The position numbers and the translations under genes are program-made. The notes below the pieces were generated by a model, which saw nothing but the letters and a program-made list of their open reading frames with translations, was not told where the DNA came from and searched no databases. A DNA stretch of 64,000 nucleotides, from the NCBI RefSeq assembly GCF_000427965.1, contig NZ_ATZA01000023.1, positions 1 to 64,000 of the forward strand, written 5' to 3'. Shown here piece by piece: positions 20,090-24,828 of this stretch; the stretch's first letter is position 1; each line of letters starts with the position of its first letter. Origin of the DNA: Olivibacter sitiensis DSM 17696. GTDB lineage: Bacteria > Bacteroidota > Bacteroidia > Sphingobacteriales > Sphingobacteriaceae.

Positions 20090-21211
20090 TTATTTCAATA
20101 AATTTTTAAGGCTTTCTGCATTTGGTAGTGCATCTTTAAACTGTTCGGGTATTTCGCTACTTGTTCTATAGGTAGCTACTCCCATTGCTTTACTAAAATC
20201 CCTGAAACTGTATTCTACAATTTTATTGTTTTTTTCTTTGCAAAGAATGATCCCTATAGATGGGTTTTCGTGTGGCTGCCTGATGGTATCGTCCAATGCC
20301 GATAAATAAAAGTTCATTTTGCCAAGATATTCGGGTTTAAATTTTCCTGTTTTTAGCTCAAAAGCAACCAAACATTGTATTTTTCTATTGAAAAACAATA
20401 AGTCAATAAAGTATTCTTGCTCTTCAACAATCAGACGATATTGATTGCCCATAAAGGCAAAATCGTTACCGATGGTCAGGATGAATTTTTTGATATTACG
20501 TACGATTTCATTTTCAATCAACCGCTCATCTTCTTCGTCGGGATTTTCAATATTGATAAAATCGAGAAGGTATTCATCCTTGAATGACTTTAATGCTTTT
20601 TCATTGTTGGTTGGAGATAATGCCGATTTGAAATTATTGGGCAATTTACCTTGTTGGCTGTATAAACCGGTTTTGAGTTGTTGTTCCAAATGACGATAGC
20701 TCCAGAATTCCGATGCTGTTTTGCATAAATAGAACCATGCTTCATATAGTGAGTTTGTTTTAGATGCAATTAGGTAATGATTCGAAAAACTAACGGAGAA
20801 AAATACATTCGCGAAGTTCTCCGAAATGAGTTGTTGCCCTTCTTTTTGTAATAAGTTCGGCAGTGTCAAATTTATTGCTTCATCTGGATTTATCAATTGG
20901 TTCGACACTGTCGAACCAATTGATAAATGGTTAAGCCAGAACTCTGAAAAGACCCTCATTTTCTTAATATTGCCACTTGAAAAACCCTTTAATCCTGGCA
21001 ATTCTTTTTGTAACTCGAATGAAATTTGGTCTATAACCTTACTTCCCCAAGCCATTTTTTTTATATTGGAGCTAATTTTTTTGCCAATATCAAAGTAAAG
21101 GACTATCAATTTCTTGTTTACCAAACGGGCAGCCTGATACCTACTTTGGAGAATGGCATTTTTAAGTTCCCTTATAAAGCTATCGTCGTATTGTTTCGTC
21201 ATTTTCATCAA
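20090..21211 (-). CDS. DUF1016 (YhcG-like) PD-(D/E)XK nuclease family protein
   Basis: A 373-residue protein inserted between hisC and hisB. The N-terminal DUF1016 part reads ELKNAILQSRYQAARLVNKKLIVLYFDIGKKI... and the C-terminal part is a PD-(D/E)XK nuclease-like fold with YFIDLLFFNRKIQCLVAFELKTGKFKPEYLGKMNFYLSALD (about residues 268-305; ELK and the upstream Asp are the likely active site). YhcG homologues occur near restriction and defence genes, and their function is not settled. Residues around NHLSIGSTVSNQLINP are encoded by a 41-bp perfect inverted repeat. Lateral insertion is inferred. Confidence 0.88.
   Translation of the reverse strand: MMKMTKQYDDSFIRELKNAILQSRYQAARLVNKKLIVLYFDIGKKISSNIKKMAWGSKVIDQISFELQKELPGLKGFSSGNIKKMRVFSEFWLNHLSIGSTVSNQLINPDEAINLTLPNLLQKEGQQLISENFANVFFSVSFSNHYLIASKTNSLYEAWFYLCKTASEFWSYRHLEQQLKTGLYSQQGKLPNNFKSALSPTNNEKALKSFKDEYLLDFINIENPDEEDERLIENEIVRNIKKFILTIGNDFAFMGNQYRLIVEEQEYFIDLLFFNRKIQCLVAFELKTGKFKPEYLGKMNFYLSALDDTIRQPHENPSIGIILCKEKNNKIVEYSFRDFSKAMGVATYRTSSEIPEQFKDALPNAESLKNLLK
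20888..20928. repeat. Perfect inverted repeat inside the DUF1016 gene
   Basis: Two 19-base arms (20888-20906 and 20910-20928) are perfect complements separated by three bases (ACT). The arm core is CAATTGGTTCGAC. The element is read through in frame and encodes about 13 residues of the protein. The mRNA would form a very stable hairpin in the middle of the coding region. Confidence 0.85.
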
Positions 21212-23646: not shown

Positions 23647-24498
23647 TTACAGAATGATTTTTTCTATGGGCATCACCAGTATCCCTTGTGCGCCTATCGC
23701 TTTTAGTTTATTTATCTTATTCCAGAAATCGGCCTCGGGTATCACCGTGTGTACGGCCACCCAGTTTTCTTCTGCTAGGGGCACCACCGTAGGACTTTTG
23801 ACGCCCGGTAGCAAGGCCAGTATCTCGTCCAGGTTTTTCCGGTCGGTGTTAAGAACAACGTACTTCGTTTCCTGTGCTTTCAAGACCGATTGGATGCGTT
23901 GCAATAGTTCTATCACGATGGGATTTTTGGCAATGCCGTTCATGCCGATGAGTATGGCTTCAGACTTGGCCACATCGGCAAAAGGTATCAACCCATTGCT
24001 TTTTAAGGTGCTGCCAGTAGAAACGATATCGCAAATCGCATCGCTAAGGCCAAGTCCCGGTGCTATCTCTACCGAACCGGAGATGGTGCGTATATCGGCA
24101 TTGACCTTGTTCTTGTCGAGAAATTTCTGGAGGATGACGGGGTAGGAGGTGGCGATGGACTTGCCTTCGAGGTCTTGGAGGATGGTAGCCTTGCTATCGG
24201 CGGGAACGGCAATCTTTAAGGTACATTTGCCAAATCCCAATCGCTGCAGGTAGGTGACCGATACCTCGGTTTCGTCTATCACGTTTTCGCCCACGATACC
24301 TAGGTCGGCAATGCCATCCTGTACGTATTCTGGTATGTCATCGTCTCGGAGGAACAATATCTCCAGTGGAAAATTGGAGGCCGTGGTCATGAGGGAACTC
24401 TTGTAGTTGTCGAAATTGAGCCCGCATTTTTTCAGTAGTTCGACTGATTTTTCGTTTAGTCTGCCCGATTTTTGAATCGCTATCTTTAATGTTTCCAT
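23647..24498 (-). CDS. hisG: ATP phosphoribosyltransferase (long form)
   Basis: First and committed enzyme of histidine synthesis, joining ATP and PRPP. With 283 residues it is the long form with a C-terminal regulatory domain (about 210-283, KTVVPLAEENWVAVHTVI-like text), so it should be directly feedback-inhibited by histidine and needs no HisZ. Catalytic part: KIAIQKSGRLNEKSVELL, LRDDDIPEYVQDGIADLGIVGENV and DAICDIVSTGSTLKSNGL, the PRPP loop. It heads the operon, 152 bases after the leader peptide stop. Confidence 0.96.
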   Translation of the reverse strand: METLKIAIQKSGRLNEKSVELLKKCGLNFDNYKSSLMTTASNFPLEILFLRDDDIPEYVQDGIADLGIVGENVIDETEVSVTYLQRLGFGKCTLKIAVPADSKATILQDLEGKSIATSYPVILQKFLDKNKVNADIRTISGSVEIAPGLGLSDAICDIVSTGSTLKSNGLIPFADVAKSEAILIGMNGIAKNPIVIELLQRIQSVLKAQETKYVVLNTDRKNLDEILALLPGVKSPTVVPLAEENWVAVHTVIPEADFWNKINKLKAIGAQGILVMPIEKIIL

Positions 24499-24720
24499 TG
24501 TTGTTTTTGCTGGTTTTCTGATTCCAAATACCTGATATTACTTGTTTGATAAGTAGGGACCAGAATCAAAAAAGCCTATGCTTGATGATAAAAATTAACA
24601 AAATTAAAATTAAAACGTTGGGGGGTATTCTGCTTCACGTAGAAACATACTTATATCATATCGCCACAATGGCGATGATGGATATGGGTATGATGTGTGA
24701 AGACTTGGATCATTGCATGG
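24499..24720 (-). promoter_or_regulatory. Histidine operon leader (putative attenuator)
   Basis: The region between the promoter and hisG on the minus strand. It contains the 20-codon leader, a hairpin of 7-base arms with a 3-base loop (24660-24676, ATCGCCA against TGGCGAT) directly over the last His codons, and alternative pairings downstream: 24627-24632 can pair with 24561-24566, while 24563-24568 can pair with 24519-24524, so the two are mutually exclusive. A weak candidate terminator (AAGC stem, T6 run) lies at 24568-24583. The exact fold was not computed. Confidence 0.7.
24651..24713 (-). CDS. hisL: Histidine operon leader peptide
   Basis: A 20-codon ORF, MIQVFTHHTHIHHRHCGDMI, with histidine at positions 7, 8, 10, 12, 13 and 15: six His in nine residues, which is not expected by chance. 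It lies upstream of hisG on the same strand and begins eight bases after the -7 promoter box. By analogy with proteobacterial hisL, ribosome stalling at the His codons when charged tRNA-His is scarce would change the fold of the RNA downstream and allow transcription into hisG. Too short to be a functional protein; its role is as a sensor. Confidence 0.88.
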   Translation of the reverse strand: MIQVFTHHTHIHHRHCGDMI

Positions 24721-24752
24721 CAAATGTAAACAATGATACCACTTGTGCAAAA
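24721..24752 (-). promoter_or_regulatory. Promoter of the his operon
   Basis: On the minus strand TTTTG (24752-24748), exactly 19 bases, then TACATTTG (24728-24721): an excellent Bacteroidota promoter. The start point would fall about 5-8 bases downstream, at or only a few bases before the leader-peptide ATG at 24713, so the leader message would have almost no 5' UTR. Confidence 0.75.
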
Positions 24753-24828
24753 TTTTTTTTGAAAATCTTGTCTTATGCTCCAGCTCTTGAGGCAATAGGG
24801 ATTTCAGGTCAAGCGTAGGCGCTGCGAT

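What the first reader, a model, noticed from the sequence alone, without database searches (positions are those of the whole stretch)
24499..24752. Histidine attenuator in a Bacteroidota his operon
A 20-codon leader ORF (24713-24651, minus strand) contains six His in nine residues, just upstream of hisG and just after an excellent promoter. A 7-bp hairpin with a 3-base loop sits over the last His codons, and downstream segments offer mutually exclusive pairings. Attenuation by leader peptides is well described in Proteobacteria; for this phylum the layout, in front of the whole operon, is much less documented.
Basis: partly seen in the sequence, partly recalled or inferred. Interest (0 to 1): 0.9.

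Follow-up and report, generated by a model that had tools for sequence, protein, structure and literature searches.

The report
Histidine leader-peptide switch without terminator
A tiny histidine-rich gene in front of the histidine-making genes probably lets the cell sense when histidine runs out; it is kept throughout this bacterial family, where the usual stop-transcription hairpin was not found and control may act on the start of protein synthesis instead.

Summary
In detail: 24713-24651 (minus) encodes MIQVFTHHTHIHHRHCGDMI, six His in nine residues, just before hisG. It is not chance. A His-rich ORF precedes hisG in 110 of 111 loci, nearly all of the window's own family, and in 60 of 90 loci outside it, against 1 of 450 shuffles.

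The output differs from the textbook. Outside the family 45 of 66 leader-bearing loci have a strong intrinsic terminator. In 45 dereplicated family loci none was found downstream of the leader, nor in the window, although the same genome's trp operon has one. Instead there is a hairpin over the last His codons (P2), a covarying hairpin GUUUC-UACGU-GAAAC (P3), and in most genera a long-range helix (P1) joining the leader's start to the hisG start region. hisG close to the leader starts with UUG/GUG in 107 of 108 loci; further away it is AUG in 14 of 15.

I infer a translation-level attenuator, a new variant of a known kind. The window keeps the leader, P2 and P3, but hisG lies 152 nt away with AUG and P1 is not supported there (p 0.16), so its own output is unproven.

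The parts
24748..24755 (-). AAATTTTG: either the congeners' -7 element with its first base changed (RNA start about 30 nt before the leader ATG) or, by its TTTTG, the -33 element of the next item
   Evidence: position matches the -7 elements of four congeners; reading open
24721..24728 (-). TACATTTG, full match to the Bacteroidota -7 consensus TANNTTTG; if used, RNA would start at about 24716-24715, 2-3 nt before the leader ATG
   Evidence: spacing rule of 4-5 nt from PMC6847099
24651..24713 (-). leader ORF MIQVFTHHTHIHHRHCGDMI, six His codons in nine
   Evidence: conserved in the family
24660..24676 (-). hairpin P2: last His codons paired with the end of the ORF (7 bp, 3-nt loop)
   Evidence: in relatives one pair is GC in 20 and AU in 17 of 39 sequences
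24631..24647 (-). hairpin P3: UGUUUC-UACGU-GAAGCA, just after the leader stop; loop sequence conserved
   Evidence: 97.4% of cells paired, two pairs with changes on both sides; in 41 genomes the 13 pattern matches with at most one mismatch all lie before hisG
24620..24625 (-). C run after P3 (C-rich patch at the same place in many relatives)
   Evidence: meaning unknown
24509..24581 (-). predicted hairpin upstream of the hisG start; possible output structure, unproven
   Evidence: minimum-energy fold; not better than shuffles
23647..24498 (-). hisG (ATP phosphoribosyltransferase, long form), ATG start
   Evidence: PF01634 and PF08029
22323..23627 (-). hisD
   Evidence: PF00815
21253..22314 (-). 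hisC-type aminotransferase
   Evidence: PF00155
18829..19980 (-). hisB (HAD-like plus IGPD)
   Evidence: PF00475, PF13242
18202..18807 (-). hisH (glutamine amidotransferase)
   Evidence: PF00117
17429..18178 (-). hisA
   Evidence: PF00977
16665..17516 (-). hisF
   Evidence: PF00977
16011..16616 (-). hisIE
   Evidence: PF01502, PF01503

Best explanation
The element is a leader-peptide attenuator of the his operon. Ribosomes translate the His-rich ORF; when charged histidyl-tRNA is scarce they stall on its His codons, and this raises expression of hisG and the genes behind it. In this family the output is not an intrinsic terminator. In most genera an outer helix P1 pairs the leader's 5' UTR and start codon with a segment ending about 11 nt before the hisG start codon, which is itself a weak UUG or GUG. 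With histidine present the ribosome clears the leader, P1 closes and both starts are sealed. Under starvation the stalled ribosome, and any queued behind it at the leader start, keeps P1 open and hisG is translated. Shown: leader, P2 and P3 conservation, no terminator found, P1 co-variation, start-codon shift. Inferred: the direction of control, the stall, the queue, translation as the step controlled. In the window's own species hisG is 152 nt from the leader stop with AUG and P1 is not supported, so sensing is expected to be the same but the output structure is unknown.
For: Leader: 110 of 111 loci (at least 3 His in 10; 99 distinct upstream regions), 39 of 40 loci taken by genome handle (at least 4; 28 of them new), 60 of 90 outside the family versus 1 of 450 shuffles. 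No terminator found downstream of the leader in 45 dereplicated family loci with hisG within 100 nt; the five hits at -6 kcal/mol or better are P2 itself; window best -1.7. Outside, 45 of 90 at -8 or better versus 1 of 90 shuffled, all 45 among the 66 with a leader (at least 3 His) and none among the 24 without. The same genome's trpE leader, MIIEVYMHSWWWPTQK, has a textbook terminator. P3: 97.4% of cells paired, closing pairs CG/GC and GU/GC/UA. P1: own pairs -10.1 versus swapped -7.6 kcal/mol in 51 dereplicated loci, p 2.5e-6, mock region no effect, p 0.17; own better than the median swap in 15 of 18 genera, p 0.008. hisG start: 107 of 108 UUG/GUG when within 90 nt of the leader stop, AUG in 14 of 15 when further; AUG in 38 of 38 leader-bearing loci within 90 nt in other families. 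hisD in the same loci has an in-frame ATG available in 91 of 102, hisG in 2 of 121 (one record twice). Initiation in this phylum is tuned by mRNA structure near the start (PMC6847099, passages).
Against: In an equilibrium model one ribosome stalled on His codons does not open the hisG start; only a ribosome at the leader start does. Own P1 partners reach the best tenth of swaps in only 17 of 51 loci; they are no better than the median swap in g3, g15 and g22 and hardly better in g2 and g16. In the window's genus P1-like pairing is weak (p 0.16, 0.26, 0.10, 0.10, 0.04). In six Parapedobacter loci P1-like pairing (p 0.02-0.17 each) is seen although hisG starts 117-296 nt after P3, so sealing hisG cannot be its only role. 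Unguided RNAalifold recovers P3 only. The changes to AUG represent about three events, with one near-type exception (L023). In other families 6 of 28 leader-bearing loci further than 90 nt and 8 of 24 without a leader also have a non-AUG or unassigned start. No expression data.
Confidence: 0.52

Rival explanations
1. Rho-dependent (or another non-intrinsic) transcription termination in the C- and U-rich, G-poor stretch after P3, prevented when ribosomes stall in the leader.
For: The stretch from 15 nt after the leader stop to hisG is G-poor (A 0.35, C 0.18, G 0.08, U 0.39) with a C-rich patch after P3 (that tally includes some loci where the script took P2 for P3). P1-like pairing in Parapedobacter where hisG is far away would fit a transcript-level output. 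Family f36 also lacks a terminator and has a G-poor pyrimidine tract.
Against: G-poor DNA is common before Bacteroidota start codons (recalled), and a stretch of about 60 nt is short for Rho (recalled). It does not explain the UUG/GUG start codons. A ribosome stalled upstream would leave the stretch exposed unless structure hides it.
Confidence: 0.25
2. Classical transcription attenuation with an intrinsic terminator, as the first reader proposed (E. coli hisL type).
For: Leader layout is the same, and other Bacteroidota families have leader plus terminator.
Against: No terminator in the window (best -1.7 kcal/mol) nor downstream of the leader in 45 family loci; no Rfam His leader match.
Confidence: 0.1
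3. P3 is the binding site of a protein (for example HisG or another regulator) and the leader ORF serves mainly to expose or hide it.
For: P3 keeps its loop sequence and flanks, not only its pairs, and close matches lie only before hisG in 41 genomes.
Against: No candidate protein; the His codons are the most constant feature. Frequent G-U pairs (15 of 39 at one pair) argue for RNA rather than a DNA operator.
Confidence: 0.1
4. A chance His-rich ORF without function.
For: None beyond the small size of the ORF.
Against: Conserved in position and content across the family and much of the phylum.
Confidence: 0.01

Closest known systems
E. coli/Salmonella his operon attenuator (hisL; Rfam RF00514 His_leader)
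   Same: Short ORF with a run of His codons directly before hisG; one leader for the whole operon (E. coli details recalled)
   Different: No intrinsic terminator found in this family, no Rfam match, different helices (P1, P3), UUG/GUG start of hisG in most relatives
Structured 5' element before hisG in Flavobacteriaceae (F. psychrophilum transcriptome study, PMC9723704)
   Same: Same phylum; leader-peptide attenuation suspected before amino-acid operons, element before hisG without Rfam hit (passages)
   Different: Many other-family loci here have strong terminators; this family has none found. The passages read give no mechanism for hisG
Histidine RNA attenuators of Firmicutes (PMC9413887)
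   Same: His-rich leader ORF before the his operon; that paper also notes attenuators in which a structure hiding the ribosome-binding site replaces the terminator (passages)
   Different: Different phylum; described with terminator and antiterminator hairpins
ermC-type translational attenuation (recalled; named in a PMC2965389 passage)
   Same: Stalling in a leader ORF would open the start of the next gene
   Different: There the signal is not amino-acid specific and a Shine-Dalgarno sequence is hidden; here His codons, and the helix also covers the leader's own start
Bacteroid-trp motif (Rfam RF01692; PMC2864571 Table 1, passage)
   Same: Listed there as a cis-regulatory RNA of Bacteroidetes
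   Different: A trp motif by name; it matched neither the window nor the own-genome trp leader L277 at gathering threshold

Membership tests
Ribosome-mediated transcription attenuator of his (hisL type) | Short leader ORF rich in His codons directly before the first his gene | tested here: met
Ribosome-mediated transcription attenuator of his (hisL type) | Intrinsic terminator between leader and first gene | tested here: not met
   window best -1.7 kcal/mol; 0 of 45 dereplicated family members downstream of the leader; the same scan finds 45 of 90 outside the family
Ribosome-mediated transcription attenuator of his (hisL type) | Mutually exclusive antiterminator pairing | tested here: inconclusive
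   window alternatives no better than shuffles
Rfam RF00514 His_leader | Match to the covariance model | tested here: not met
T-box riboswitch | Match to the T-box model | tested here: not met
   only a tRNA in the window at gathering threshold; no T-box among hits at E up to 10 in 24400-24800
Translational attenuator (start-site sequestering) | RNA pairing over the start region of the regulated gene, opened by ribosomes in the leader | tested here: inconclusive
   pairing supported for the family by partner swaps; not supported in the window (p 0.16); opening by a single stalled ribosome not reproduced at equilibrium
Translational attenuator (start-site sequestering) | Change of translation of hisG with histidine supply | not testable with these tools
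   needs reporter or ribosome profiling

The most novel reading that the evidence does not exclude
One bacterial family replaced the terminator of a his attenuator by a translation-level switch: a long-range helix seals the start codons of both the leader peptide and hisG, hisG drifted to a weak UUG/GUG start, and a sequence-specific hairpin (UACGU loop) at the leader stop takes part as a ligand or timing element. In the window's genus and some Parapedobacter hisG then moved away and returned to AUG while leader, P2 and P3 stayed, a second rewiring of the output.
Probability: 0.4. Interest if true: 0.7.

Novelty: new variant of a known kind. Interest (0 to 1): 0.5.

Why it matters
It gives a phylum-wide series in which one amino-acid sensor (a His-codon leader) is kept while its output changes: terminator in many families, none found in two. 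The same genome keeps a terminator-type trp attenuator, so the two designs can be compared in one cell. Bacteroidota ribosomes mostly ignore Shine-Dalgarno sequences (abstract in the listing), so a switch that works by structure and start-codon strength would show how translation is regulated without them. The predictions (codon swaps, helix repair mutants, UUG to AUG) are simple to test.

Tried and rejected
A DNA operator reading of P3: disfavoured because the dyad contains frequent G-U pairs and a conserved asymmetric centre. P3 as an intrinsic terminator: few members have a T run right after it. P3 shared with other operons: in 41 genomes the 12 matches without and the 1 with one mismatch lie before hisG; of 14 with two mismatches 13 lie elsewhere, against 32 hits of the reversed control (the pattern is that of the window's clade). 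The hairpin before hisG as an inserted repeat: the search of its own genome shows only short weak matches besides itself. A local hairpin before hisG as a feature of the genus: only one of five genomes folds better than shuffles (G037, p 0.003). Sequestor/antisequestor in genus g5: the two helices can form together, so not exclusive. An Ile/Leu/Val leader before ilvD in the same genome: none found. hisC as a start-codon baseline: too few usable alignments, 14. From I first read congener G037 as near-leaderless; one search shows a 34-nt stretch between its -7 element and the leader ATG, and that reading was dropped. MAFFT misaligns P1 and partly P2 across genera, so P1 was tested by swapping partners, not by column counts; no covariance model was built.

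Rows dropped or repeated: the 151 family loci are 127 distinct upstream regions. One search used 97 of 111 loci (promoter recognised, hisG within 100 nt), dereplicated to 45; alignment A1 used 39 of those 45 (left out L069, L076, L084, L085, L101, L108: no clear P3 or odd layout); one search used 137 of 151, then 121 with hisG within 90 nt (102 distinct), dereplicated to 51; one search removed identical upstream regions, leaving 124 family and 90 other loci; the one family locus without a leader there is L058, which has 20 nt upstream. The shuffles keep base composition only.

Full report
What is there. On the minus strand, 24713-24651 is a 20-codon ORF, MIQVFTHHTHIHHRHCGDMI, with six His in nine residues. 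The next genes are hisG, hisD, hisC, a YhcG-type nuclease gene, hisB, hisH, hisA, hisF and hisIE. The last His codons pair with the end of the ORF: AUCGCCA-UUG-UGGCGAU, 7 bp with a 3-nt loop (P2, 24676-24660). Just after the stop lies a second hairpin, UGUUUC-UACGU-GAAGCA (P3, 24647-24631), then a run of six C.

Promoter. TACATTTG (24728-24721) with TTTTG 19 nt before it fits the Bacteroidota consensus TTTG/TANNTTTG as quoted in PMC6847099 (passages). With the usual 4-5 nt to the start site the RNA would begin 2-3 nt before the leader ATG. But all four congeners have their -7 element 32-38 nt before the leader ATG, and there the window has AAATTTTG (24755-24748), one base off. The true 5' end is open.

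Not chance. Among 111 loci (own locus, 80 named ones, 30; 99 distinct upstream regions) 110 have a short ORF with at least 3 His in 10 residues before hisG; the one without has only 20 nt of upstream DNA. Of 40 family loci taken by genome handle (28 of them new) 39 have at least 4 His in 10. Outside the family 60 of 90 do, against 1 of 450 shuffled regions. The loci with the most distant hisG (27-34% identity) lack it, but for a 3-His ORF in L225. Named loci include Parapedobacter, Pedobacter, Mucilaginibacter and Olivibacter. Two congeners, G015 and G052, have the contig lengths of Olivibacter sp. XZL3 and O. jilunii, so the window is probably from Olivibacter.

Two kinds of output. Of the 66 loci outside the family with a leader (at least 3 His), 45 have a strong intrinsic terminator before hisG (-8 kcal/mol or better with a U run); the 16 of family f36 and 5 others have none; none of the 24 loci without a leader has one (1 of 90 shuffled). 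One class (L161) reads AAACCCGTTTGAG...CAAGCGGGTTTTTTATT with CTCAAGCG in the leader as a ready antiterminator partner, the textbook arrangement. In the window's family the same scan finds nothing downstream of the leader in 45 dereplicated loci with hisG within 100 nt; the five hits at -6 kcal/mol or better are P2 followed by a U-rich stretch, and the window's best is -1.7. The machinery is available: trpE in the same genome has a leader with three Trp codons in a row and a terminator ending in eight T.

What the family has instead. P2 covaries (one pair GC in 20, AU in 17 of 39 sequences). P3 pairs in 97.4% of cells, with two pairs changed on both sides; G-U pairs are frequent, and the loop is mostly UACGU (UACGC in most Mucilaginibacter). 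A pattern for the window's form of P3 over 41 genomes has 13 matches with at most one mismatch, all before hisG. P1 is a long-range helix between the 5' UTR with the leader's start and a segment before hisG. Its sequence differs between genera, but partners match: own pairs average -10.1 kcal/mol against -7.6 for partners swapped between species (51 dereplicated loci, p 2.5e-6; own in the best tenth of swaps in 17), while a mock region shows no effect (p 0.17). With one locus per genus, own beats the median swap in 15 of 18 (p 0.008). The 3' strand ends a median 11 nt before the hisG start; the 5' strand ends a median 2 nt inside the leader's start codon.

Start codons. In the family, hisG within 90 nt of the leader stop starts with UUG (71) or GUG (36) and once with AUG, of 108; further away it is AUG in 14 of 15, the other being L253, whose leader is doubtful. 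In other families leader-bearing loci within 90 nt have AUG in 38 of 38; further away 22 of 28, and without a leader 16 of 24. Of 121 close family loci only 2 (the same record) have any in-frame ATG near the start, whereas hisD in the first 111 loci has one in 91 of 102 usable alignments. The moves to AUG fall in about three groups (the window's genus, some Parapedobacter, genus g5), so this is a few events, not 14. I take the weak start as a sign that initiation at hisG is what is controlled.

Mechanism. Stalling on His codons under starvation is inferred from the layout. P1 would form once a ribosome has left the leader, sealing both starts; stalled and queued ribosomes would keep it open. 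A simple equilibrium calculation supports only part of this: a ribosome at the leader start opens the hisG region (mean gain 0.05 in unpaired probability, up in 22 and down in 5 of 45), a single one on the His codons does not. Kinetics and queueing, or crowding by the ribosome, must do the rest. F. johnsoniae work shows that structure near the start tunes initiation in this phylum (PMC6847099, passages).

The window is a derived case. hisG begins 152 nt after the leader stop with AUG. If its RNA starts like that of its congeners, about one in six shuffles pairs as well as its best P1-like duplex (p 0.16; congeners 0.26, 0.10, 0.10, 0.04; an earlier variant of the test for three of them gave 0.18, 0.46, 0.01); if it starts at the better promoter, P1 cannot form. 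The hairpin predicted before hisG is no better than shuffles, nor is the best alternative duplex. So sensing is well supported here, the output is not.

Against the model. Six Parapedobacter loci show P1-like pairing over the leader start (p 0.02-0.17 each) although hisG starts 117-296 nt after P3, against 45 nt in L015, so P1 may serve the leader's own start, or a transcript-level output such as Rho. Own P1 partners are no better than the median swap in three of 18 genera and hardly better in two. RNAalifold without guidance finds only P3.

What is known. Rfam has no match in the region: at gathering threshold only a tRNA in the whole window, and only sub-threshold hits to unrelated families at E up to 10. 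Passages read: PMC9723704 reports leader-peptide clues before amino-acid operons in F. psychrophilum and a structured element before hisG; PMC7366714 mentions short ORFs in long 5' UTRs of Bacteroides thetaiotaomicron reminiscent of leader peptides; PMC9413887 describes his attenuators in Firmicutes and mentions attenuators that hide a ribosome-binding site; PMC2965389 stated in 2010 that leader peptides had been shown only in Proteobacteria and Actinobacteria, ermC apart; PMC8305728 on Bacteroidota his genes mentions attenuation only for E. coli and Salmonella in the passages found. A 2004 comparative study of attenuators (PubMed 15135544) is not held; from recall its abstract names Bacteroidetes/Chlorobi among groups with candidates. 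Searches with attenuation or leader-peptide terms together with Bacteroidetes, Sphingobacteri, Flavobacteri or Pedobacter listed no paper on his leaders of this family. They cover open-licence papers only.

Noticed in passing
window 20090-21211 (-): A YhcG/DUF1016 PDDEXK nuclease gene sits inside the his operon between hisC and hisB; the same stretch of four congeners shows no relative of it.
   Followed up: partly
L277 (own genome, contig C1 near 224334): trpE is preceded by a textbook trp attenuator: MIIEVYMHSWWWPTQK and a terminator AACCCGACGCTGTCAACGTCGGGTTTTTTTT; no Rfam match at gathering threshold.
   Followed up: partly
L144, L147, L213 and 13 other loci of family f36: His leader ORF starting mostly with GTG only a few nt after a -7-like element, no terminator, G-poor pyrimidine tract before hisG: a second terminator-less type.
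   Followed up: partly
L247-L250 (genus g5): A third layout in the family: leader ending HHGHHHHCA, CGCAGCGAGTTTTAG able to pair with TAAAACTGCGG, and a hairpin before an AUG-started hisG.
   Followed up: partly
L002, L004, L008, L011, L016, L026 (Parapedobacter): hisG starts 117-296 nt after P3 (45 nt in the sister type L015); a TTGAA remains where L015 starts hisG, as if the old start were retained.
   Followed up: partly
window 24740-24708 (-): If the upstream promoter is used, GGTATCATTG and CAATGATCC could form a hairpin over the leader's own ATG (p 0.07 against shuffles).
   Followed up: partly
L101 (genus g22): The His leader reads on through the P3 position and ends 26 nt before hisG.
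   Followed up: no
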